Assembly: GCF_030551255.1 (NCBI RefSeq)
Contig: NZ_CP130630.1
Location: 9,361,001-9,425,000 of the forward strand
From: Streptomyces sp. NL15-2K
Lineage (GTDB): Bacteria; Actinomycetota; Actinomycetes; Streptomycetales; Streptomycetaceae
Length of the DNA: 64,000 nt
Direction of reading: 5' to 3'
Shown: one piece after another, positions 10,574-42,112 of the stretch
Layout of the letters: each line of letters starts with the position of its first letter
Numbering within the stretch: the first letter of the stretch is position 1
The notes under the pieces: generated by a model
The model's input: only the letters and a program-made list of their open reading frames with translations
Database searches by the model: none
Told to the model about the DNA's origin: nothing
Translations under genes and position numbers: made by a program

Positions 10574-12088
10574 GTGGATCCCTTCCCCCCGCCCCCCGCC
10601 GACGACGCCGCACCGCGCGACGACGTCGCGGACCGCGCCGACGCCTACGCGGCGGCGCCCCTCCTGAACTGCCTGCTGAGGGAGGTGGCCGAGCCCCTCC
10701 AGGGGACCGGCCGACGCCGCGTGTACCGGCTGCCCGGGGGAAGACTGCTGCGCGTGCGCGGCGAGCGGCGGCCCGCGGAACCCGAGGTGTACGCGGGGGA
10801 CGGCTGGCGGCGCGTCGGCCACCCGGAACTCGTCAAGCTCGTCGCCGAGGAACTGGTCCGGCACACCGGCCTGCCCAACCACGAACTGCCCGCCGAGATG
10901 ATCGACAGCCGCGACGCGGTCGCCGCCCTGCTCACCGCCCGCGCCGGCGCGACGCCCCCCGGCGACCCCTACCTGCTCTCCGAGCAGTCCCTCCTCACCG
11001 GCCACCCCCGCCACCCCGCGCCCAAGGCACGCGGCGGCGGCCCCGTCGCCGGCTGGCTGCCGTACGCGCCCGAGGCGCACGCCCGCTTCCCGCTGGCGCT
11101 GCTCGGCCTGCGCGCGGACACGGTCGTCGAGGAGGGCGACACCTCCGCCCTCGACACCCTCGGCGAGGCCCCGCCCGGCTACCGGCTGCTGCCCGCCCAC
11201 CCCTGGCAGCTCGACCTGGCCGCCCGCGACCTCGCCCCGGCCTTCGTCGACGGCCGCCTGATCCGGCTCGGCGAGACGGCCTTCGAAGCCTGGCCGACCG
11301 CCGCGATCCGCACGCTGTACGCCCCCGAGCGGGACCTCTTCCTGAAGTTCAGCCTGGATGTGCGCATCACCAACGACATCCGCCGGCTGTGGCGCCACGA
11401 CCTGTTGAAACTCCGCCGTACGGACGCGGCGGTACGCACCGCCTTCGCCGCCCTCGACGGCCCCGCGGCCTGGCTGAGCGACAGCGGCTACCGCACGGCC
11501 GACTTCGCCTTCGAGGAACTCGCCGTCCTGGTCCGCGACGGACTGCGCGCTCACCTGGTGCCCGGCGCGACCCCGCTGCTCGCCGCCGGGTTGGTGGAGG
11601 ATTTCGCGGGCAGCCCGCTCGACGGTACGGCCGATCCGGCGGCCTGGTGGGAGGCGTACCTGGCCCAGGTCGTGCCCCCGGCCCTGGCGGCCTTCGCCGA
11701 CCACGGCGTCGTACTCGAAGCGCATCTGCAGAACACCCTGGTCGCCGTCGACGCCGACGGTACGCCGGTGCAGGCGTTGTTCCGGGACGCCGAGGGCGTG
11801 AAGCTGCTGCCGGAGGTGTCCCGGGCGGCCGGCTGGGAGCGACTGGTGTACTGCCTGATCGTCAACCACCTCAGCGAGATCGCCGCGGCCCTGGCCGAAC
11901 ACCGTCCCGGCCTCGACCCCTGGCCCGCCGTACGCCGTGAACTCTCCCGCCACGACCTCCCCGAGATCCCCGCCCTGCTCACCTCGCCCACGCTGCCCGG
12001 CAAGACCAACCTGCTGCTGCGCTGGACGGGCGCGGACGGAGCCGATGCCCGGTATCTGCCGCTGCCGAACCCGCTGGCCCGTACCTGA
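10574..12088 (+). CDS. IucA/IucC-type NIS siderophore synthetase (B)
   Basis: 504 residues from GTG 10574 (VDPFPPPPADD), chosen because it gives the same length as the divergent paralogue; in-frame GTGs at 10565 and 10499 are alternatives and none has a good ribosome site. Motifs: GHPRHPAPKARGGG (HPxHPxxKxR), LLPAHPWQLDLAAR, KFSLDVRITNDIRRLWRHDL, EAHLQNTLVAVD and FRDAEGVKLLPE. It differs from synthetase A at nearly every motif, so the pair is not a recent duplication and each enzyme probably takes a different substrate. It is convergent with the marR gene 65 bases downstream. Confidence 0.82.
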   Translation: MDPFPPPPADDAAPRDDVADRADAYAAAPLLNCLLREVAEPLQGTGRRRVYRLPGGRLLRVRGERRPAEPEVYAGDGWRRVGHPELVKLVAEELVRHTGLPNHELPAEMIDSRDAVAALLTARAGATPPGDPYLLSEQSLLTGHPRHPAPKARGGGPVAGWLPYAPEAHARFPLALLGLRADTVVEEGDTSALDTLGEAPPGYRLLPAHPWQLDLAARDLAPAFVDGRLIRLGETAFEAWPTAAIRTLYAPERDLFLKFSLDVRITNDIRRLWRHDLLKLRRTDAAVRTAFAALDGPAAWLSDSGYRTADFAFEELAVLVRDGLRAHLVPGATPLLAAGLVEDFAGSPLDGTADPAAWWEAYLAQVVPPALAAFADHGVVLEAHLQNTLVAVDADGTPVQALFRDAEGVKLLPEVSRAAGWERLVYCLIVNHLSEIAAALAEHRPGLDPWPAVRRELSRHDLPEIPALLTSPTLPGKTNLLLRWTGADGADARYLPLPNPLART

Positions 12089-12153
12089 GCGTGGCGTGAC
12101 CACTGTTCGACAGGTGAACCGCGAGGACCACGCGCCCGCCCCGTCCCCGTCGG

Positions 12154-12666
12154 TCAGGGCTGGGGCGGTGCGCAGGCGTTGCCGGTCTGCTGCCCGTCCT
12201 CGATCCGTTCGACCGGCGCGCCGACGAGCTGGCGGAGCACGGATCGCAGCGCCTGCTGAGACGGGGCGTCCAGGTCGGCCAGCAGACGGTTCTCGATCGC
12301 CTCGACGTCGTCGCGTGCGGCGTCGAGGGCACGGCGGCCGTCGTCGGTCACCTCGACGATACGGGCCCTGCGGTCGGCGGGGTCGGGGCGGCGGCGGACC
12401 AGGCCGGCCGACTCCAGCTCGTCGATGACCAGGACGAGCTTGCTCTTGTCGACCGAGACGGCCTGGGCGAGCGAGAGCTGGCTCCTCATGGGCGCCTCGA
12501 CGATGGCCATCAGGACCGTGTAGCCCCACAGACTCATGCCGTGCTCGCGCACGACCGAGGTCTCCGCGCCGGCGAGCCCCTGCTTGAGCCGGGCGAACAA
12601 CCAGTGCAGATCGCTGTGGAGCCGGCTGCCCGACGCCCGGTCGCCGGCGGGAGTGGTGAGGGACAT
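12154..12666 (-). CDS. MarR-family regulator
   Basis: 170 residues from ATG 12666. The winged helix covers about residues 45-130: LSLAQAVSVDKSKLVLVIDE (HTH) followed by the wing RRRPDPADRRARIVEVTDDG, the MarR DxRxxxxxLT-type signature. It is divergent from an azoreductase gene across 98 bp containing two copies of an 18-bp direct repeat. MarR/azoreductase divergons usually answer to quinones or azo compounds, with the repressor blocking both promoters. Confidence 0.87.
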   Translation of the reverse strand: MSLTTPAGDRASGSRLHSDLHWLFARLKQGLAGAETSVVREHGMSLWGYTVLMAIVEAPMRSQLSLAQAVSVDKSKLVLVIDELESAGLVRRRPDPADRRARIVEVTDDGRRALDAARDDVEAIENRLLADLDAPSQQALRSVLRQLVGAPVERIEDGQQTGNACAPPQP

Positions 12667-12697
12667 GTCAGCAGGATAGCAAAGGAATCAAATCGTC

Positions 12698-12749
12698 TTG
12701 ACTTGAGATTATCTTGGTCTAATCTGGTTTCGACTTCAGATCATCTTGC
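12698..12749. promoter_or_regulatory. azoR promoter with two MarR-type operator copies
   Basis: GACTTGAGATTATCTTGG (12700-12717) and GACTTCAGATCATCTTGC (12732-12749) are direct repeats 32 bp apart (three helical turns). Each has a quasi-palindromic core AGATnATCT. A promoter, TTGACT (12698-12703), N16, TAATCT (12720-12725), faces azoR; the first repeat lies in its spacer and the second over the predicted start point. This is a classical repression layout. Confidence 0.65.
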
Positions 12750-12764
12750 CTGGAAGGGAATGCT

Positions 12765-13433
12765 GTGGCGCATCTGCTGCACCTGGACGCCAGTGCCCGG
12801 AGTGAGTCGTTCTCGCGGGAACTCGGCGCAGCCTTCGTCGAACACTGGAAGGCCGCCCATCCGGAAGGCACCTACACCTATCGGGACCTGGTGGCGGAGC
12901 CGGTCGCGCCCATCGACGAGGCCCGGGTCCGGCTGGCCACCCGGTCCTCCCTGAACGGGGTGCGGGACATCGCGGCCATGGACGAAGTGGTGGCCGCCGC
13001 GCCCGAGCTGGCCAAGGCGTGGGCGGCGACCCGCCCCCTCATCGAGCAGCTCCTCGAGGCGGACGTCATCCTCATCGGGACGCCCATGTACAACTTCACC
13101 GTCCCCGGCTCGCTCAAGACCTGGATGGACCGGGTGACCCTGCCGTGGCTGCCGCTCGCGGGGAAGTCCGCCGTGATCCTCAGTGCCCGCGGCGGCGCCT
13201 ACGGCCCCGGTACTCCCCGGGAGCCCTTCGACTTCCAGGAGCCCTTCCTGCGCGCCTACTTCTCGATGCTGGGCCTCGCGGACGTGGAGTTCGTGCACAC
13301 CGAGCTCACCCACGCTCCGGTCATGCCGTTCCTGGCGCAGTTCAAGGACGACCACGAGGCGTCCCGCACCGCCGCTCTGGACGCGGTCGAGGCGCTGGCC
13401 ACCCGCGTACCCGCACAGACCCCCACGGCCTGA
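12765..13433 (+). CDS. azoR: FMN-dependent NADH:quinone/azo oxidoreductase, AzoR-like
   Basis: 222 residues from GTG 12765, preceded by GGAAGGGA. This is a flavodoxin-fold protein: HLDASARSESFSRELG (FMN phosphate loop), then GTPMYNFTVPGSLKTWMDRV (AzoR signature with the flavin contact MYNF) and LSARGGAYGPGTPREPFDFQ. It reduces quinones and azo bonds by two-electron transfer from NAD(P)H as a cytosolic dimer, protecting against electrophiles. Expression is probably controlled by the divergent MarR protein. The SDR gene 85 bases downstream may be co-transcribed. Confidence 0.85.
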   Translation: MAHLLHLDASARSESFSRELGAAFVEHWKAAHPEGTYTYRDLVAEPVAPIDEARVRLATRSSLNGVRDIAAMDEVVAAAPELAKAWAATRPLIEQLLEADVILIGTPMYNFTVPGSLKTWMDRVTLPWLPLAGKSAVILSARGGAYGPGTPREPFDFQEPFLRAYFSMLGLADVEFVHTELTHAPVMPFLAQFKDDHEASRTAALDAVEALATRVPAQTPTA

Positions 13434-33616: not shown

Positions 33617-34210
33617 CTCTGCCGACCGTGCCGAGCAGGGCTTGCAGTTCGGTGGGCGGGGGCTGTCGGACCATGGCAGCCACCAGCGTGGTAGCGCGAT
33701 GTGGGCCCCTTCTCCGGCCGCCCGGGTAGGTCGGCCTCGGTGGCGGGGTCGGGCAGCGGTGCCTGGTGGGGTTGGCTGGTCCAGGTGTCCCAGCAGAAGG
33801 AGAACGCGCGGTTGGGTCCCGTCTGGCCCTCACCGGCCCGGGCTGGGCGTCGGCGGCCCATCAGGTGGTGTGCTCGTCGCGGAAGGCGCGGGTCACCGGT
33901 GTCCAGCCGCCCGGAGTGTCCGGTCCGTGCCAGGCCAGTGCGCGGGCGGCGTCCTGCGGGGGTGTACGCCTGATCGCCGTAGGCCCAGGCGCCCCTGGCG
34001 GCGTTCGAGGGCCATCACGAACGGCCCGGGGCGGCCCGGCGGCTGGCCTGGTTCCTGATCCAGGCGGGGATGTGCAGCGGGTAGTGCAGGCGCTCGTCGG
34101 CCCACAGCATGATGACGGTGATCACGCCGTTGCGAGCCTTGCCCAGCCGGCCCAGCCACTGCCGCCCCACGTGCGCGGTGGCCTTGCCGTCCTTCCGGTC
34201 GCACCCCCCC
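33571..34210 (-). pseudogene. Decayed IS701-family transposase
   Basis: Minus-strand fragments in different frames add up to an IS701 transposase. DRKDGKATAHVGRQWLGRLG followed by NGVITVIMLWADERLHYPLH (34040-34206) comes first. Next are pieces corresponding to GPDTPGGWTPVTRAFRDEHT and AFSFCWDTW (about 33780-33920), and finally PPTELQALLGTVGRGRHLNP near 33600-33670. Several frameshifts and an internal deletion separate them. The end coincides with the 46-bp repeat. It is inactive. Confidence 0.7.
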
Positions 34211-34342: not shown

Positions 34343-35584
34343 GTGGTAGACATACAGCCCTGGGGATATACAGAGGACTTAGTGGCCGTAACCGGTGGCT
34401 GGGCAAAAGATCTCGACCGGCTAATCGCCACTGCGGGTTCCGCAGTACTCGCCGACTTACTGGCCGCCGAGATTCAGCACCGCCTTGCCGCGCCGCACGG
34501 CGCGGCCGGGACGGCCGTCAGCCTCACCATCTCGCACGGCAACTGCCAGTACGCCTACCAGGTCATGTTCAAGGAGGACCAAGCGGCCGTCACTGCCGGC
34601 CCCTCGGCCGAGCCGGTTGCGACCATCAGCTATGACCTGACCGATCTAATCCGCCTGCTGTACGCACCGCACCCTGGATACGCTTCCACCAGCCGGGAGG
34701 TTGACGCCAAGACCTGGCCGTGGCCGGAACCCGCCGACGGGGCCACCGGGGACCAGTTCCAGGAAATGGTCCGCCGCGGCGAAGCCACCCGCGAGGAGCT
34801 TTCCCGCCTCGGCCGCGAGCGACTTGGCCTCATCGCCAAGGCCGTCCACGCCGTCATCGCCGCCTGCGAAGTCTCCGCGTGCCCGCTTTCCGACCTGGCT
34901 GTGCAGTACGGCTCGGACAAGTGGGGCTCCCTGCATTGGTACACGCAGCACTACCAGCGGCACTTCGCCGACGTGCGGTATGACCCGATCCGAATTCTGG
35001 AAATCGGGATCGGCGGGTACGGTCATGATTCAATCGGCGGCGGATCGCTTTACATGTGGCAGCAGTTCTTTCCCAGGGCCCTGGTCTATGGTCTGGACAT
35101 CTATCCCAAGCCCGCCGTCACGGGACCGCGCATTCGCACCATCGTGGGCGACCAGAACGACCCAGCCTTCCTCGCCGAGCTTGCGGCCGACGCCGGTCCC
35201 TTCGACATCATCATCGATGACGGCAGCCACATCAACGAGCACATTTCCACCAGCTTTACCCACCTGTTCCCGCACGTTCGCCCGGGGGGCTGGTACGTCA
35301 TCGAGGATCTGCACACCGCGTACTGGCCCGCATTCGGCGGCAATGCCCTTCCCGGGGCCGCCGGCACCTCCGTCGCCCTACTCAAGGAGCAGCTTGACCG
35401 GCTGCACCACGAAGAGTATCTCGATGCCGGCCACCCCGACCTCACGAACCCGTCTCACCCGTCTGAAGTGCTCATGTACCACAACATCGCGTTTCTCCGG
35501 AAAGGCAATAACCGCGAGGCAGGTATCCCCGCCTGGATCAAGAACCAGGCCAGCCGCCGGGCCGCCCCGGGCAGCAGCCACTGA
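34343..35584 (+). CDS. MycE/TylE-like macrolide-sugar O-methyltransferase, C-terminus replaced by IS sequence
   Basis: 413 residues from GTG 34343, behind TGGAGG. The N-terminal ~200 residues form the helper domain of the family. The SAM domain shows SDKWGSLHWYTQHYQRHF, RILEIGIGGYGHDSIGGGSL (SAM loop), VYGLDIYPK, IVGDQNDPAF, FDIIIDDGSHINEHISTSF and VRPGGWYVIEDLHTAYWP. This matches metal-dependent 2''/3''-O-methyltransferases of mycinamicin/tylosin type, which act on macrolide deoxysugars. Codons 13 and 39 are TTA (bldA-dependent). The tail GIPAWIKNQASRRAAPGSSH copies the IS701 remnant (IPAWIRNQASRRAAPGRS), so the last ~15 residues are not native. Confidence 0.83.
   Translation: MVDIQPWGYTEDLVAVTGGWAKDLDRLIATAGSAVLADLLAAEIQHRLAAPHGAAGTAVSLTISHGNCQYAYQVMFKEDQAAVTAGPSAEPVATISYDLTDLIRLLYAPHPGYASTSREVDAKTWPWPEPADGATGDQFQEMVRRGEATREELSRLGRERLGLIAKAVHAVIAACEVSACPLSDLAVQYGSDKWGSLHWYTQHYQRHFADVRYDPIRILEIGIGGYGHDSIGGGSLYMWQQFFPRALVYGLDIYPKPAVTGPRIRTIVGDQNDPAFLAELAADAGPFDIIIDDGSHINEHISTSFTHLFPHVRPGGWYVIEDLHTAYWPAFGGNALPGAAGTSVALLKEQLDRLHHEEYLDAGHPDLTNPSHPSEVLMYHNIAFLRKGNNREAGIPAWIKNQASRRAAPGSSH
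35523..35573 (+). repeat. IS701 fragment forming the 3' end of the methyltransferase gene
   Basis: ATCCCCGCCTGGATCA(A/G)GAACCAGGCC and onward is the inverted copy of 34020-34070 inside the transposase remnant, about 50 bases with few mismatches. The join sits in codons for GIPAWI, where native family members also read GIPTWI, which suggests recombination at short homology. Confidence 0.7.
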
Positions 35585-35965: not shown

Positions 35966-36067
35966 AATCCGACAGGCCATCACAAAAGATCGAGGCTACC
36001 ACTGGGGCCGATAGGGGTTCAGTATCGACCGGGTCATTCCTATGCTGATGCCCGACAGGGCTTATCC

Positions 36068-36085
36068 CGGTAATCTGAATTACCG
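36068..36085. promoter_or_regulatory. Palindrome upstream of the glycosyltransferase gene
   Basis: CGGTAAT-CTGA-ATTACCG is a perfect 18-bp dyad ending 40 bases before the ATG. It lies in the only AT-rich part of the interval and may be an operator. Confidence 0.45.
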
Positions 36086-36125
36086 TCAACGGAAACTCTC
36101 GCCTCCTGAAAGGAATCCGAATTCC

Positions 36126-37319
36126 ATGAGATTCTTGTTCATCGCCGGCGGAACTCCCTCATCCGTCTTCGCCCTGACCCCGCTCGCAACAGCCGCGCGC
36201 GATGCGGGACATGAGGTCCTCATGGCCGCCGTTGAGTCGGTAATGGATGACATAGCGGCCGTCGGAATTCCCGGGGTCCCCGTCGCCACGGAGATTCTGG
36301 CTCAGTTAATGCACTTCGATGACTCGGGGAATGTCATAAAAGTACCCCGAGAGCCGCGTGAACTCATGCTGCATGTAGGCCGGTCCTACGCCAAGATGGC
36401 CGCCGCGGAGCTCGACGGGCTGCTGGACTTGACGCGGGACTGGCTACCTGACGTGGTTGTCGGCGGCACGATGTCCTACGCCGCCGGACTGGTCGCCGCC
36501 CAGCTCGAGGTCCCCTATGTACGCCAAACCTGGGACATAGCCCCGCACGGAGACACCGACGAGGGCGCCGAGGAAGTGCTCCAGCCCCAGCTGAAGCGCC
36601 TGGGGCTGGCGGGACTGCCGAGCCCCGCCCTCCACATCGAGATCTGCCCGCCGTCTCTGCAGCCGCTGCTGCCACCGTTGGGCACTACCGCCGCGCAGCC
36701 GATGCGCTGGATCTCGGCCAACCGCCAGCGCCGCCTTGAGAAGTGGATGTACACCCGCCCCACAGGGCGTCGGCGCGTACTGCTCACTTCGGGAACGCGC
36801 GCCCAACTGATCCACGAACCCATCGGGCCCGTAGGGCCACTGTGGCCTCTGCGGAGCCTGGTGAAACAGCTTGACTTGGCGGGTGTCGAAGTACTGATAG
36901 CGGCACCCGAACGAGCCGCCGAACAGCTCGGTGCGGAGCTCGACGGTGTCCGCATCGGCTGGATGCCGTTGGATGTGGTGGCACCCACCTGCGACCTGAT
37001 CATGCATCACGGAGGCGGGATCACCTCGATGACCGTGATGAGCGCAGGAGTCCCGCAGCTGATCACTCCGGAAGCCGCTTACGGGGAGATCATCGGGCAG
37101 GTGCTGTCAGACTTCGGCTGCGGTCGCATGCTGATGCCGGAACAGCTGGCCCCGGGGCAGGACCCGGCCGAGGCGATCGCCGCGTGTTGCGGCGAGATCC
37201 TCGCCAACCCGATGTACGCGCAGCAAGCGCGGGTCCTCGCCGATGAAATTGCCGGGCTTCCGACGCCCCCCGAGGTGGTGCGGTTGCTGGCGCGCTTACC
37301 GGAGCGCTCGGCGCGCTGA
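36126..37319 (+). CDS. GT1-family (GT-B) glycosyltransferase of natural-product type
   Basis: 397 residues from ATG 36126, with GAAAGGA at 36108-36114. N-terminal Rossmann half RFLFIAGGTPSSVFALTPLA and TAARDAGHEVLMAA; C-terminal half with the nucleotide-sugar motif MHHGGGITSMTVMSAGVPQL. Length and motif order match macrolide and aromatic-polyketide glycosyltransferases. No P450-like activator gene is adjacent, so it is probably activator-independent. It would attach a deoxysugar to the PKS product, and the methyltransferase at 34343 would modify that sugar. TTA codons occur at codon 61 (36306-36308) and codon 391 (37296-37298), making it bldA-dependent. Two hairpins follow. Confidence 0.85.
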   Translation: MRFLFIAGGTPSSVFALTPLATAARDAGHEVLMAAVESVMDDIAAVGIPGVPVATEILAQLMHFDDSGNVIKVPREPRELMLHVGRSYAKMAAAELDGLLDLTRDWLPDVVVGGTMSYAAGLVAAQLEVPYVRQTWDIAPHGDTDEGAEEVLQPQLKRLGLAGLPSPALHIEICPPSLQPLLPPLGTTAAQPMRWISANRQRRLEKWMYTRPTGRRRVLLTSGTRAQLIHEPIGPVGPLWPLRSLVKQLDLAGVEVLIAAPERAAEQLGAELDGVRIGWMPLDVVAPTCDLIMHHGGGITSMTVMSAGVPQLITPEAAYGEIIGQVLSDFGCGRMLMPEQLAPGQDPAEAIAACCGEILANPMYAQQARVLADEIAGLPTPPEVVRLLARLPERSAR

Positions 37320-37343
37320 GCTCAACGGACCACGGTCGGGTGG

Positions 37344-37404
37344 CCCGGGGGAATCTCGCCCCGGGGCTCCCACGGAACGGAGCGTGACAGTCTGCCGTCA
37401 CTCC
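37344..37404 (+). terminator. Two consecutive hairpins after the glycosyltransferase gene
   Basis: CCCGGGG (37344-37350) pairs with CCCCGGG (37359-37365). GGA/GTGAC (37379-37388) pairs with GTCAC/TCC (37397-37404) and is followed by a pyrimidine-rich TCTTCTC. Together they should end the transcript. Confidence 0.6.
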
Positions 37405-37582
37405 GCTCTTCTCATCGAGTCAGTCAGAACGCGCGGACCCAGGCGCGGTCCCGCTCCTGCACGGTGGCCGGAGACCGGGAAGTACTGGCGGCCATCGTGT
37501 TCGTCGCCACGTCGGTCGGAACGTTCCTCACCAGTACGATGCCTGTCATGCATCACCTCTGTGACTGACCAGCGATCGTTCC

Positions 37583-38959
37583 GTGGCCCTCCGCAGGCCA
37601 CGGGGCACACACGACGTCATTCCGTCGTTCGTCCCGGTCATCGTTCGGGACGTCACACTGCTGGAGTCACTGGTGCTCTTCGCTCGACGCCGCCCTCACG
37701 GAAACCTTGTCGCTCTCCTGCGTGACAACGCCGACTTCCGACGCCTCTTCTGTGCTTCCGCTCTCAGCCTGACCGGTGACTGGTTCACTTTCGTCGCCCT
37801 CAGCAGCTTCGTCTACCGCCATACGGGCTCGGCGGGCTGGACAGCGCTGCTGTTCGCCGTCAACTCCCTCCCCGGAGTTGTGCTGCTGCCGCTGATCGGT
37901 CCGCTCACCGACAGGTTCGACCGGCAACGCTTGCGCATCGCGTGTGATCTGAGCGCGGTCATTCCGGTCGCCGGCCTGCTGGTCGCCTTTCACACCCAGT
38001 CCGTCCCACTGGCCCTCGGCTGCCTGGCAGGGCTGTCCATCGCCGCCGCCATCGCGAGCCCCATCCCCGAGGCCGCACTGCCGAACCTCGTCACCTCCCG
38101 TGAGCTCCCGCTGGCACAGACCGCGCTCGGGAGCCTGTACTCAGCGGGCCTGCTGTTGGGAGCCGGCCTGGGAGGCGTGGTCTCGGCGGCATGGGGTGCC
38201 TCGGCCACCCTCGTCATCGACGGTGCGTCCTTCGCCATCTCCGCCCTCCTCATCGCGAGGATCAGGCAGCCGCTCTCCAAGGCGATGACGACTCGCCGGA
38301 TCCGAATGCGGGCCGATACGGCCGAACTCTGGACCTTCGTACGGTCCACCCCGGTAGTGTCCGCCTTCCTGTGGCTGACCGTGGGACTGCGCCTCTGCTA
38401 CGGCATGGTCGGCCTGTTGCCTGTTTACGCCCTGGACCGCTTCCACGTCGGCGACGCCGGCGTCGGGGTCCTGTATCTGGCACAAGGACTCGGCGCCGTA
38501 CTCGGTCCCTTCCTCGGCCGACGGCTCGTCGCCGGATCAATGCGCCGGAGACTGCACACAGCCGGAGCCGCCCTGGCGCTCTTCGGGTTCGGCTATCTCG
38601 CCCTGGCCCAGGTCACAGCCCTCGGTCCCGGCATGGCCGCAGCACTGATCGGCCACATCGGAGTGGGCGCGTGCGCCATCCTCGCAATCAACGGCCTTCA
38701 GCTCGCGACACCCGACCACATCCGCGGCCGTGTCATGGTTCTCGTCTTCGGCCTCTCCTCCGCTCTCCAGGGTGTGTCGTCTCTCGCGGTGGCACCTCTG
38801 GCCGCGTCCATCGGCATGCCCGACACCACCCGGTTTCTGGCAGGGCTCGCCGTTGTCTACGCGGCCATCTGGGCGATCGGTGTAACACGCACGGAGATGG
38901 CGCGAAAGACCCTCGAACCGGACACGACCCACGAGGACGCTCCCGACCTCACGCACTGA
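37583..38959 (+). CDS. MFS exporter, probable product efflux
   Basis: 458 residues if GTG 37583 is used; GTG 37673, with GGAG seven bases before it, gives a cleaner start (VLFARRRPHGNLVALLRDNA). Twelve hydrophobic segments. The DNADFRRLFCASALSLTGDW entry helix and GPLTDRFDRQRLRIACDLSA loop are typical of the DHA3/enterobactin-exporter type (MFS_3). It lies between the glycosyltransferase gene and the peptide/HExxH operon and may export either product. No resistance gene of another type is present in the window. Confidence 0.8.
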   Translation: MALRRPRGTHDVIPSFVPVIVRDVTLLESLVLFARRRPHGNLVALLRDNADFRRLFCASALSLTGDWFTFVALSSFVYRHTGSAGWTALLFAVNSLPGVVLLPLIGPLTDRFDRQRLRIACDLSAVIPVAGLLVAFHTQSVPLALGCLAGLSIAAAIASPIPEAALPNLVTSRELPLAQTALGSLYSAGLLLGAGLGGVVSAAWGASATLVIDGASFAISALLIARIRQPLSKAMTTRRIRMRADTAELWTFVRSTPVVSAFLWLTVGLRLCYGMVGLLPVYALDRFHVGDAGVGVLYLAQGLGAVLGPFLGRRLVAGSMRRRLHTAGAALALFGFGYLALAQVTALGPGMAAALIGHIGVGACAILAINGLQLATPDHIRGRVMVLVFGLSSALQGVSSLAVAPLAASIGMPDTTRFLAGLAVVYAAIWAIGVTRTEMARKTLEPDTTHEDAPDLTH

Positions 38960-39205
38960 CCCTGTCAAGAACTGCTCACCTGCGCTCTCGCGGAGCGGCC
39001 CGGCAACCGTGAGCGGAAGCGGCGGTTTCTCTTTCGTTTCCGGCCTGGCGTGTGACCAGCGCATAGGCACTCTGCGTCACTACCTGGATTCGTCTTATAA
39101 CCGCGCTTTGATCGCCCTCCCTCGCCGGGAAGGGTTGAAGCGGCAACGAGCGTCCGGACGCTCGGTGTCGCACCGCAACGACCAGCCCCGAAGGGAGTGA
39201 ATACA

Positions 39206-39349
39206 GTGGACGACCTCCTCCAGAAGATCGCCGCGACGATCACGAACGAGGACATCACGCAGGCGCAGGAGTCCTCCGCCGCGATGAGCGAGACGAGCGG
39301 CGACGCCAAGAAGTACCGGCTGCAGATGTTCGCCGCCGACCAGGGCTGA
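39206..39349 (+). CDS. Putative RiPP precursor peptide (47 aa)
   Basis: GTG 39206 with AAGGGAG eight bases upstream (39191-39197). The 47-residue product starts MDDLLQKIAATITNEDITQA, an acidic amphipathic helix like a RiPP leader. It then has QESSAAMSETSGDA and ends KKYRLQMFAADQG, with Tyr, Gln, Met, Phe, Asp and Gln as possible modification sites. No cysteine or double-glycine site. It lies first in an operon of three HExxH genes and is separated from them by a hairpin, the usual layout for a highly expressed precursor. A weak TATAAC box is at 39096-39101. Function is inferred; I know no named homologue. Confidence 0.6.
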   Translation: MDDLLQKIAATITNEDITQAQESSAAMSETSGDAKKYRLQMFAADQG

Positions 39350-39363
39350 GCCCGAGCTGGCCG

Positions 39364-39404
39364 CCGCCGCAGGGAAGATCCACTCAGAACCCCTGCTGCG
39401 GCGG
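39364..39404 (+). terminator. Hairpin between precursor gene and first HExxH gene
   Basis: CCGCCGCAG (39364-39372) pairs with CTGCGGCGG (39396-39404), nine perfect pairs with a 23-base loop that can pair further through AGGG/CCCT. There is no U-tract. It could act as a partial terminator or mRNA stabiliser that favours precursor expression over the enzymes. Confidence 0.6.
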
Positions 39405-39456
39405 TCCGCGACCGCCCCCTCAACAGCCGCTGCCGCCGATGAGGCGAGGAGAAGCC

Positions 39457-40356
39457 ATGCTGCATCTGTTCGGAGCTGAAGAAAATCTGAGGACGATCAC
39501 CGCACTCGCCTTCCCCTTCATAGGCAAGGTAGAGGCCGTTACATTTCCTGTCCTCAAAGAGGCGTACCGATCTTTCCTCCGCAGTGTGCAGCCCAGCGTC
39601 CCGTCCGAAACCGGTGACGGGCCTGCTTACATCCAGGAGACGTATCGCACCCGGGAGTATCTGGGCATCTTCAGCGCGGACTCGGCCTTGACCGACACCC
39701 GCTACCAGTTCGGAACAGTGAACGAATCCTCTGCGGCGATAGAAATAGACGCGCAGAAGGCGCTGGCCTGGACCCAAGAACGCGCGGACTCTGTCGCTCG
39801 GCGAGACGAGGCCTTCGCCGCACTCTTCCCACTGGCCATGAACGCGGTCTTCCAAGCGCCCAGCGGGATAGCCAGCGGAGGCACCACCAGCGCCGCACTC
39901 GGTGTCCTGTGGGTCGACCCGAGGGACTCGTGGGACGACCGAGACCTCGAAGAGTTCTTGATACATGAGCTGAACCACACGCTGATCTTCCTGGACGAGT
40001 GTCGATTCGGACTCTTCACGTCCTACCCGGAACTCCTCAAACAGGAGAACTGGGTTACGTCCGCGATCCGCAAGACAGTCCGTCCCCTGGACAAGGCGTA
40101 CCACAGCGCGATTGTCGCTGCGGACGTCCTGCTTGCGCGCGAAGAAATTCTCGGGCACCCGGACTCTGCGATACTTCACCCTCTCTCGCCGGCCATGGCG
40201 CAGGGAGCGATGGAGGCTGTCCGGGACATCAGCCTTCCGCCCACGCGAGATCTCCTCACTCCGCACGCACTGGAAACCCTGGACCGCTGCCGACAAGAAG
40301 TGGAGCGCCTGACCCGGAAGAACGGTTGGCCCGTGACCGTCCCGGCCGGCGACTGA
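39457..40356 (+). CDS. HExxH peptide-modification enzyme, paralogue 1
   Basis: 299 residues from ATG 39457, behind GAGGCGAGGAG. Central motif EEFLIHELNHTLIFLDE, HExxH at 170-174. Exactly 39 and 71 residues after the first His come Arg209 (SAIRKTVRPL) and His241 (AILHPLSP). The two paralogues downstream keep both spacings, so these are probable co-substrate and third metal ligands. N-terminal pattern: MLHLFGAEENLRTITALAFP, then EAYRSFLRSVQPSVPS. The family looks like the HExxH putative peptide-modification proteins (TIGR04267), members of which are now described as Fe(II)/2-oxoglutarate peptide beta-hydroxylases. No signal peptide or membrane segment. A zinc protease is the alternative. Confidence 0.68.
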   Translation: MLHLFGAEENLRTITALAFPFIGKVEAVTFPVLKEAYRSFLRSVQPSVPSETGDGPAYIQETYRTREYLGIFSADSALTDTRYQFGTVNESSAAIEIDAQKALAWTQERADSVARRDEAFAALFPLAMNAVFQAPSGIASGGTTSAALGVLWVDPRDSWDDRDLEEFLIHELNHTLIFLDECRFGLFTSYPELLKQENWVTSAIRKTVRPLDKAYHSAIVAADVLLAREEILGHPDSAILHPLSPAMAQGAMEAVRDISLPPTRDLLTPHALETLDRCRQEVERLTRKNGWPVTVPAGD

Positions 40357-40370
40357 GGAGCTGATCAGGC

Positions 40371-41237
40371 GTGTATTTCCTCGGAGGCGCTGCCACCAAC
40401 CTCCAAACGCTCATGGTGCTCGCCCAGCCTCACCTGCCAGAGGGTGAACCGCTCACCGAGAGGACCGTCGCACGGGCCTACCGCGACTACCTTGCCGACC
40501 TTCAGCCGGACGTACCCAGCACCCCCACCGCCGAGACCTTCCTGGTGCGCGACGAATCCCAGTCGCAATTTCTGGCCGAACTGTTCGGCCTGCAGAGGAG
40601 CCCGGCGGAAAATCAGGAATACGCGATAGCGGAAAAAACATCTATGGATGACGGGAAGGCTGCTTTCTTCGAGGAGGGACTGAAGCGGCTCGCCCAGTAT
40701 GACACCGAACTTTCCGCGCTCTTCCAGATGGCTGTGAAGTCGGTTTTCTCCACTCCGGCCAGCTCCATCCCCGGCAGCATGACAGTACGCGCCGCACTCG
40801 GCGTTGTGTGGGTATACCCGCTCGCAACCTGGGCTACTGAGGACCTGATCGAGGCGTACGTACACGAACTCACCCACACGCTCGTCATGCTCGACGAGCG
40901 CCGGTTCACCCACTACCCGCACTACGATGAACTGGACCGCGAAGAGAATCTCGTGAACTCCGCGATCAGGAACGAGAAACGCTCGCTCTTCGCCTCCGTA
41001 CACAGTGTCTTCGTGGCGAATGAACTACTTCAGCTGCGAGAAGCCCATCACGGTCACCGCATGGAGTTTCGCATACATCCTCCATCGCGGAACATGCGTG
41101 AAAAATCGCTTACGGCTCTCGAATCCGTTCTCGCACTCCCGAACATCAATCGCCTTGCCAGCCCTCGGCTCCGGGAAATGCTCGAAAAAACGGGAAAGCA
41201 GCTGGACGCTATTCGTCCTGGTGCACTGAGCTCCTGA
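40371..41237 (+). CDS. HExxH peptide-modification enzyme, paralogue 2
   Basis: 288 residues from GTG 40371, 14 bases after the previous stop codon, with GAGGAG overlapping that stop. HExxH at 165-169 (EAYVHELTHTLVMLDE), Arg204 and His236 (FRIHPPSR) at the same +39 and +71 spacings as paralogue 1. N-terminus VYFLGGAATNLQTLMVLAQP and ARAYRDYLADLQPDVPS align with the others. The segments around the motif are conserved (ALGVVWVYPLATWATEDLIE), while the 60 residues after the N-terminal block vary and may select the substrate position. Same operon, presumably the same or a neighbouring residue on the precursor. Confidence 0.68.
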   Translation: MYFLGGAATNLQTLMVLAQPHLPEGEPLTERTVARAYRDYLADLQPDVPSTPTAETFLVRDESQSQFLAELFGLQRSPAENQEYAIAEKTSMDDGKAAFFEEGLKRLAQYDTELSALFQMAVKSVFSTPASSIPGSMTVRAALGVVWVYPLATWATEDLIEAYVHELTHTLVMLDERRFTHYPHYDELDREENLVNSAIRNEKRSLFASVHSVFVANELLQLREAHHGHRMEFRIHPPSRNMREKSLTALESVLALPNINRLASPRLREMLEKTGKQLDAIRPGALSS

Positions 41238-41254
41238 CCGAGAGAAGGTGGACA

Positions 41255-42100
41255 ATGTTTTTTCTCCGTGGTCCCGAAGAAGGGCTCCAGGACGTCGTCA
41301 CGCTCTCCGCTCCCTACCTCGACCGCCGCAGCGTCTCGCTTCCCGCGGTCAAGGCCGCTTACCAGGCGTACCTTGCCGTCCAGCAGCCCAAGGTTCCATC
41401 GAAAACCGTTGAGCACACCGAATTCGTCCGCGACGGATCAAGGCGGACGGAGTTGAGCAGCTGGTTCCGCAGTCCTGACGCACCGGACATGGCGGGGGTG
41501 CCGGAAGACTCTTCGGCGGTGGAACGGGCCATGGATCGAGTCGAGGAGGGATTCCGCGTCCTGTGCGGGAGCGAGCCGGAACTCGCCCCGCTGTTTGATC
41601 TCGTGGTCAACCAGGTGTTCGTCATGACGCTTCCGCAGGAGCCGGGCAGCGGTTCCTCCTTCGACGGGGTCGGGCTCGTCTACATCAACCCGCTGCCCGA
41701 GTGGAGCACACAGGACGTCATCGAATGCCTGGTCCACGAGTTCGCCCACACTCTCCTCTACCTGGACGCCCTACGGCACACGCACCACCCTGACTATCGC
41801 CTGCTCGACATGCCGGAGAATGAGGCGGAGACCGCGATCACCGGGCGACGTCGGTCGATCTTCTTCGCATTCCAGAGTTTCCTCATCGCGGCCGAGATCC
41901 TCACTGTGCGACACCGTCATCCCGAGATCTGCCCCGGCGTAGGCATACATGGGTCCACTCCCGAGATCCTGGCCACCGCGAAGAGGACGTACGACCGTTG
42001 CATGGCGCATCCGAACCTCGACGCTCTCGCAACACCTCGACTCAAGACCCTTCTCAGCGACGCTCGCGCCCGCATGCAGGAGATCGAGCAGAGCATGTAG
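41255..42100 (+). CDS. HExxH peptide-modification enzyme, paralogue 3
   Basis: 281 residues from ATG 41255, with AGAAGGTGG upstream. HExxH at 161-165 (ECLVHEFAHTLLYLDA), Arg200 and His232 (VGIHGSTP), again +39 and +71. N-terminus MFFLRGPEEGLQDVVTLSAP and AAYQAYLAVQQPKVPSK. It is the most divergent in the C-terminal third. The three genes are adjacent with gaps of 14 and 17 bases and have normal high-GC codon use, so they arose by old tandem duplication. The gene ends 57 bases before PKS1. Confidence 0.68.
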   Translation: MFFLRGPEEGLQDVVTLSAPYLDRRSVSLPAVKAAYQAYLAVQQPKVPSKTVEHTEFVRDGSRRTELSSWFRSPDAPDMAGVPEDSSAVERAMDRVEEGFRVLCGSEPELAPLFDLVVNQVFVMTLPQEPGSGSSFDGVGLVYINPLPEWSTQDVIECLVHEFAHTLLYLDALRHTHHPDYRLLDMPENEAETAITGRRRSIFFAFQSFLIAAEILTVRHRHPEICPGVGIHGSTPEILATAKRTYDRCMAHPNLDALATPRLKTLLSDARARMQEIEQSM

Positions 42101-42112
42101 CCGAAACCCGAG

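What the first reader, a model, noticed from the sequence alone, without database searches (positions are those of the whole stretch)
39206..42100. Peptide gene plus three tandem HExxH enzymes: a possible new RiPP system inside a PKS cluster
A 47-residue peptide with an amphipathic acidic N-terminus and a C-terminal KKYRLQMFAADQG is followed by a 9-bp hairpin and three paralogous genes with HELNH, HELTH and HEFAH. The order precursor-hairpin-enzymes, the lack of other RiPP enzymes (no LanB/C, YcaO or radical SAM), and three copies of one enzyme suggest several oxidations of one short core peptide. The enzymes resemble the HExxH peptide-modification family, some members of which are 2-oxoglutarate peptide hydroxylases. 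I know of no described system with three such enzymes and this precursor type beside a modular PKS.
Basis: partly seen in the sequence, partly recalled or inferred. Interest (0 to 1): 0.85.

Follow-up and report, generated by a model that had tools for sequence, protein, structure and literature searches.

The report
Peptide cassette with three hydroxylase-like enzymes
A small stand-alone gene cassette in Streptomyces encodes a short peptide with a conserved Met-Phe-Ala-x-Asp end, three different enzymes of the iron/2-oxoglutarate "HExxH" peptide-hydroxylase kind and an exporter, and so probably makes an unrecognised class of oxidised peptide; the polyketide genes next to it are not part of it.

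The parts
37528..42108 (+). cassette: stretch alignable at about 90% identity with L007, L008 and (with an internal deletion) L011; outside it the window matches none of them
   Evidence: blastn edges 37528 and 42105-42110; L007, L008 and L011 share about 60 bases more on the left and 130 more on the right among themselves
37583..38959 (+). MFS exporter (MFS_1 / MFS_3), first gene of the cassette
   Evidence: Pfam 91.5 bits; relative of 73-90% identity at the same place in L007-L011, 49-residue remnant in L040
39206..39349 (+). precursor peptide, 47 aa (GTG start): leader DDLLQKIAATITNEDITQAQESSAAMSE..., C-terminus AKKYRLQMFAADQG
   Evidence: conserved start and C-terminus; dN/dS
39356..39409 (+). 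stem-loop between precursor and E1 (likely attenuator or mRNA stabiliser; no T-run)
   Evidence: compensatory change
39457..40356 (+). E1, aKG-HExxH family oxygenase (HELNH)
   Evidence: TIGR04267 58.0 bits; tree; not modelled
40371..41237 (+). E2, aKG-HExxH family oxygenase (HELTH)
41255..42100 (+). E3, aKG-HExxH family protein (HEFAH), Gln at the position of the near-invariant His

Best explanation
This is a self-contained, horizontally spread RiPP cassette. The 47-residue peptide is the precursor: its N-terminal two thirds (L..I...I/VT.E..i..AQ..S..m.E) is a leader, and its C-terminal end, with the conserved Met-Phe-Ala-x-Asp, carries the core or the processing site. Three aKG-HExxH proteins (E1, E2, E3), each an old lineage of its own, bind the leader and oxidise the C-terminal segment with Fe(II), O2 and 2-oxoglutarate, most likely by beta-hydroxylation and each at its own site. 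The stem-loop lets the precursor be made in excess over the enzymes, and the MFS protein exports the product. Leader removal would rely on a protease outside the cassette. SHOWN: gene conservation and linkage, family of the three enzymes and fold of E2 and E3 models, the precursor family, absence of PKS in the related loci held. INFERRED: leader/core split, hydroxylation, division of labour, role of the hairpin, export, product.
Against: No biochemistry. E3 is under the TIGR04267 cut-off in all four type I copies tested (37.7, 37.6, 34.2, 35.2 bits) and has lost the near-invariant His, so it may not be an oxygenase, although SjiH also has Gln there. The E2 grouping is weakly supported, the tree warns of long branches, and 20 of its 36 rows belong to no group and may lie inside one. 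No protease or recognition-domain gene was seen in the cassette. 3 of the 7 type I loci are damaged (L010 E2 frameshift, L011 deletion, L040 remnant), so the trait is dispensable. Types II and III rest on one fetched locus each, and their MFS proteins are not close kin of the type I MFS (no tblastn hit at 1e-5). One database hit of the precursor profile (P0043, 746-base contig) lacks MFAxD. The hairpin of the window itself is not significant.
Confidence: 0.78

Rival explanations
1. MFAxD is not the core but a C-terminal processing tag. One enzyme (for example E3) cleaves the backbone oxidatively just before it, and the product is the more variable segment upstream (AKKYRLQ, FGPVV or FGPVN), perhaps hydroxylated and C-amidated.
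For: PflC/PosC hydroxylate Gln residues and cut oxidatively before a conserved C-terminal ARMD, leaving an amide (PMC12636437, introduction and discussion read). Here too a conserved tail follows a variable segment, and type I has Gln just before it.
Against: MFAxD resembles ARMD only in its Ala, Met and final Asp, in another order; three separate enzymes would be more than one cut needs; PflC/PosC clusters differ in precursor type and partner enzymes.
Confidence: 0.25
2. The HExxH proteins are zinc peptidases that process the peptide (maturation or immunity), not oxygenases.
Against: No Pfam peptidase model reaches its cut-off; TIGR04267 and ChlB/SjiH matches stand far above every peptidase listed.
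Confidence: 0.07
3. The cassette belongs to the neighbouring polyketide pathway: the peptide or its product is joined to, or tailors, the macrolide-like product.
For: E3 ends 57 bp before a PKS gene on the same strand; type III (L072) has a condensation-domain gene downstream.
Against: Window homology stops at the cassette edges, and no relative of the KS domain or of the upstream glycosyltransferase lies in the DNA held for L007-L011, L032, L040 or L072. PKS genes further away than the 18-21 kb held would not have been seen.
Confidence: 0.05
4. E3 is a catalytically altered partner (leader-binding or scaffold subunit) and only E1 and E2 are oxygenases.
For: Gln at the near-invariant His and sub-threshold TIGR04267 score in the type I E3s; type III does without E3 in the one locus seen.
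Against: HExxH, Trp, the Arg residues and the later His are kept; SjiH, solved with Ni, also has Gln there; E3 has the lowest dN/dS of the three.
Confidence: 0.25

Closest known systems
ChlB / ChlH fused radical SAM and aKG-HExxH proteins (Morishita et al. 2024; paper not held; known here from PMC12636437 and from PDB 8s5f)
   Same: HExxH oxygenase fold and motif; conserved Arg; acts on a RiPP precursor
   Different: [quoted passage not shown] here free-standing, three lineages, no radical SAM
PflC / PosC with PflA / PosA (PMC12636437; abstract, introduction, mining section and discussion read)
   Same: free-standing aKG-HExxH enzyme beside a precursor with a conserved short C-terminal motif
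   Different: one enzyme, an MNIO-nitroreductase partner and a nitrile-hydratase-type leader; the C-terminal motif is ARMD, not MFAxD
BpmH / BipH in biphenomycin (PMC12257519, PMC12707348; passages seen)
   Same: aKG-HExxH hydroxylase and MFS gene in a RiPP cluster
   Different: one enzyme beside MNIO, B12 radical SAM, JmjC and TldD proteins
PesO in nitrilobacillins (PMC13060819; passages seen)
   Same: aKG-HExxH beta-hydroxylase acting near the precursor C-terminus
   Different: one enzyme, acts on Pro, with MNIO and nitrile synthetase
SjiH (PDB 22ob, 22nu; no paper found)
   Same: second best structural match; Gln in place of His as in E3
   Different: deposited as a radical SAM core domain-containing protein; pathway not known to me

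Membership tests
aKG-HExxH-type peptide beta-hydroxylase (TIGR04267) | score over the curated cut-off of 40 bits: E1, E2 | tested here: met
   58.0 and 54.6 bits
aKG-HExxH-type peptide beta-hydroxylase (TIGR04267) | score over the curated cut-off of 40 bits: E3 | tested here: not met
   37.7 bits (E 2e-9); 37.6, 34.2, 35.2 in L007, L009, L010
aKG-HExxH-type peptide beta-hydroxylase (TIGR04267) | fold of the ChlB HExxH domain | tested here: met
   [not shown]
aKG-HExxH-type peptide beta-hydroxylase (TIGR04267) | Fe(II) and 2-oxoglutarate dependence, hydroxylation of a peptide | not testable with these tools
   needs enzymology
RiPP biosynthetic system | short precursor with conserved leader beside cognate modifying enzymes, kept together across genomes | tested here: met
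RiPP biosynthetic system | modified core and removal of the leader | not testable with these tools
   needs mass spectrometry
zinc metallopeptidase | match to a peptidase family model | tested here: not met
   no Pfam family over its cut-off for E1-E3; the SprT-like hit of E3 is 13.7 bits against a cut-off of 25.6
fused radical SAM / aKG-HExxH (ChlB type) | radical SAM domain in the same protein | tested here: not met
   E1-E3 are 281-299 aa, with no radical SAM model hit
part of the neighbouring PKS cluster | kept with PKS genes in related loci | tested here: not met
   no KS relative in the DNA held for 8 related loci; L072 has a condensation domain instead

The most novel reading that the evidence does not exclude
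A new RiPP class built entirely by aKG-HExxH oxygenases with one enzyme per residue: E1 and E2 act on Phe and Asp of the conserved M-F-A-x-D, and E3 acts on the residue just before Met (Gln in type I, Val in type II, both with E3 in the loci seen; Asn in type III, where E3 is missing in the one locus seen), either hydroxylating it or cutting the backbone oxidatively there to leave a C-terminal amide.
Probability: 0.2. Interest if true: 0.8.

Novelty: new variant of a known kind. Interest (0 to 1): 0.62.

Why it matters
aKG-HExxH oxygenases were recognised only recently; in the papers seen here they occur singly and beside radical SAM or MNIO enzymes. A compact cassette whose only maturation enzymes are three old, separate lineages of this family, on a 47-residue precursor with a short conserved end, gives a clean system to learn how this fold chooses residue and reaction (hydroxylation against backbone cleavage). 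Seven of the 12 precursor proteins found carry a database name, all 'hypothetical protein'. One lineage (E3) carries a His-to-Gln change at a near-invariant position, a natural test of what that position does.

Tried and rejected
PKS link: rejected. Peptidase reading: kept only as a minor rival. 'Three recent copies of one enzyme': rejected. The precursor beside the single HExxH gene and TIGR03975 radical SAM of G078 (L035; ends MNMVAFD, followed by a strong stem-loop) looked similar but is not related by profile (581 of 1000 shuffles score as high). The weak precursor-profile hits (17 of the 22 genomes with a hit, E 0.001-0.042) match only the leader part inside longer frames; 15 of those 17 loci were fetched, about 3 kb each, and none holds a relative of E1-E3 within that. 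The single-HExxH loci L041-L048 belong to another arrangement, read by eye from ORF starts. Sequence search of solved structures with the enzyme profiles found nothing usable; the fold search did. Plasmids: 4 of 72,556 records with distant (24-25%) matches to E3, not followed. Literature: searches found no description of this cassette or of an MFALD core; the library holds open-licence papers only, so absence is weak evidence. G404 (L071), with two oppositely oriented HExxH genes near an ORF that looks like a B12-type radical SAM protein (by eye), was not pursued. I did not look for an empty insertion site.

Full report
OBSERVATION. The peptide gene starts with GTG at 39206. L009 and L010 have ATG at the same place, and window, L007 and L008 encode the identical 47 residues with only synonymous changes. 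E1 (start 39457), E2 (40371) and E3 (41255) follow on the same strand, each with a plausible ribosome-binding site. A stem-loop (39356-39409) lies between peptide and E1. In the window it is interrupted and not remarkable by energy (11 of 200 dinucleotide shuffles; 18 of 200 mononucleotide shuffles). It is strong in the six related loci (0 of 200 mononucleotide shuffles in L007, L008, L009, L032 and L072, 2 of 200 in L010), with a C-G to T-A compensatory change in L009 and L010.

A CASSETTE, NOT A PKS ACCESSORY. A scan of 84,980 species genomes gave five loci. Four hold peptide, E1, E2 and E3 in the same order (L007, L008, L009, L010), and all five hold the MFS gene. L010 has E2 in two frames, that is a frameshift. 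L011 has lost the stretch matching window 38922-40829, peptide and E1 included. A sixth locus, L040 from G235, keeps only 38778-39452, with a stop codon in the peptide; its genome has no E3 relative. So 4 of the 7 type I loci, window included, look intact. Window homology to L007, L008 and L011 starts at 37528 in all three and ends at 42105-42110. L007, L008 and L011 share about 60 more bases on the left and 130 more on the right with each other, so the window's edges are those of its own insertion or decay. L007 carries a tyrosine recombinase gene upstream, and L008 a Tn3 transposase and a tyrosine recombinase. No relative of the PKS KS domain or of the window's glycosyltransferase lies in L007-L011, L032, L040 or L072 (tblastn 1e-5; 18-21 kb held for each).

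THE PRECURSOR FAMILY. In 392 genomes of the window's genus (Streptomyces by inference) relatives of E3 occur in 13. Three are type I (G000, G182, G323), and G051 has three tandem HExxH genes of its own; the other nine have one match each. Upstream of the G051 genes lies a 55-codon gene ending FGPVVMFALDKN, then a stem-loop. G943, one of 18 genomes with a match among 394 of the family, has a 49-codon gene ending FGPVNMFALDK, a stem-loop, two HExxH genes, an MFS gene and then a condensation-domain gene. A profile of five such peptides found 12 database proteins. In 11 of 12 the C-terminus is M-F-A-x-D plus 1-3 residues; the twelfth (P0043, from a 746-base contig) diverges before it. Types: I (window kin; Y[RN]LQMFA[AV]D), II (S. 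mobaraensis, S. milbemycinicus; FGPVVMFALD), III (S. cyaneofuscatus, S. monticola and two unnamed; FGPVNMFALD). To avoid circularity a profile of five type I peptides alone was scored on six type II/III peptides and 1000 shuffles of each: five beat every shuffle, the sixth (P0048) was matched by 3 of 1000. The full profile on 392 genomes left a clear gap: five genomes at E 1.2e-20 or lower, 17 others at 0.001-0.042 that match the leader part only. Of the five, three (G000, G323, G051) are themselves in the profile and two (G182, G235) are near copies, so the call shows how rare the family is rather than new members. None of the 15 weak loci fetched (of 17; about 3 kb each) has an E1-E3 relative.

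DIVISION OF LABOUR. E1 is 33% identical to E2 and 27% to E3. In a maximum-likelihood tree of 36 proteins each of E1, E2 and E3 groups types I and II (and III for E1 and E2) on one side of a branch: 99/95, 83/72 and 97/89. The tool warns of long branches; E2 support is weak, and 20 ungrouped rows are not counted. Gene order is the same too. So the triple appears to predate the split of the precursor types, and each enzyme is likely to have its own job. E3 is the most constrained (dN/dS about 0.05-0.09 between the window and its close relatives; E1 0.09-0.16, E2 0.21-0.22; ratios of the values).

MECHANISM. Known members of the family beta-hydroxylate Asp and His (ChlB), Gln (PflC/PosC), Phe and Pro, and PflC/PosC also cut the backbone oxidatively before a conserved ARMD end (PMC12636437: abstract, introduction, mining section and discussion read; PMC13060819: passages). 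By analogy the leader positions the C-terminus at the iron of each enzyme. Type I offers Gln, Phe and Asp in QMFAxD for three enzymes; this match of numbers is suggestive only. The residue before Met is Gln or Val where E3 is present (window, L007-L010, L032) and Asn in the one locus without E3 (L072), which would make it the E3 site. This rests on three lineages and is speculation.

NOVELTY. NCBI names several of the enzymes as aKG-HExxH or HEXXH motif-containing proteins and the named peptides as hypothetical proteins (7 of 12). I found no paper on this cassette (searches; open-licence library only). I therefore rate it a new variant of a known kind: a RiPP system with a new precursor family and three dedicated members of a recently recognised enzyme family.

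Noticed in passing
window 37335-37410 (-): Rfam group II intron match (RF00029, 47.9 bits) between the glycosyltransferase and the left edge of the cassette.
   Followed up: no
window 34024-34071 and 35525-35572: 48-nt inverted repeats (98% complementary) around an ORF with a MycE_N domain, a macrolide sugar methyltransferase domain.
   Followed up: partly
window 36042-37319 and 42158-64000: EryCIII-like glycosyltransferase and a modular type I PKS whose first KS reads TVDAGQSSS (Gln for the active-site Cys, KSQ-like, by eye): looks like a glycosylated macrolide cluster with the peptide cassette lodged inside it.
   Followed up: partly
L035:8300-13962: G078: another small precursor-like ORF (ends MNMVAFD) with stem-loop, one HExxH protein, a TIGR03975 radical SAM C-methyltransferase and a transporter-like ORF (by eye): probably a different RiPP cluster.
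   Followed up: partly
L041-L048: Single HExxH genes in eight genomes of the genus, several with a similar-looking neighbour on the opposite strand and some with a small upstream ORF (for example L044 6374-6598, with NCMMG near its end): another unexamined arrangement.
   Followed up: no
L032:10997-11794: The type II locus adds a 2OG-Fe(II) oxygenase (PF13640) after the three HExxH genes.
   Followed up: no
L011:5058-6545 and 11494-12873: A tRNA gene and diverged direct repeats about 6.3 kb apart on both sides of the damaged cassette: possible mobile-element ends.
   Followed up: no
G000:C1:8812883 (L001), G000:C1:11798585 (L002): Two further TIGR04267 genes in the same genome over the cut-off (about 172 bits); L002 lies in a 1768-aa frame and resembles SjiH.
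   Followed up: no
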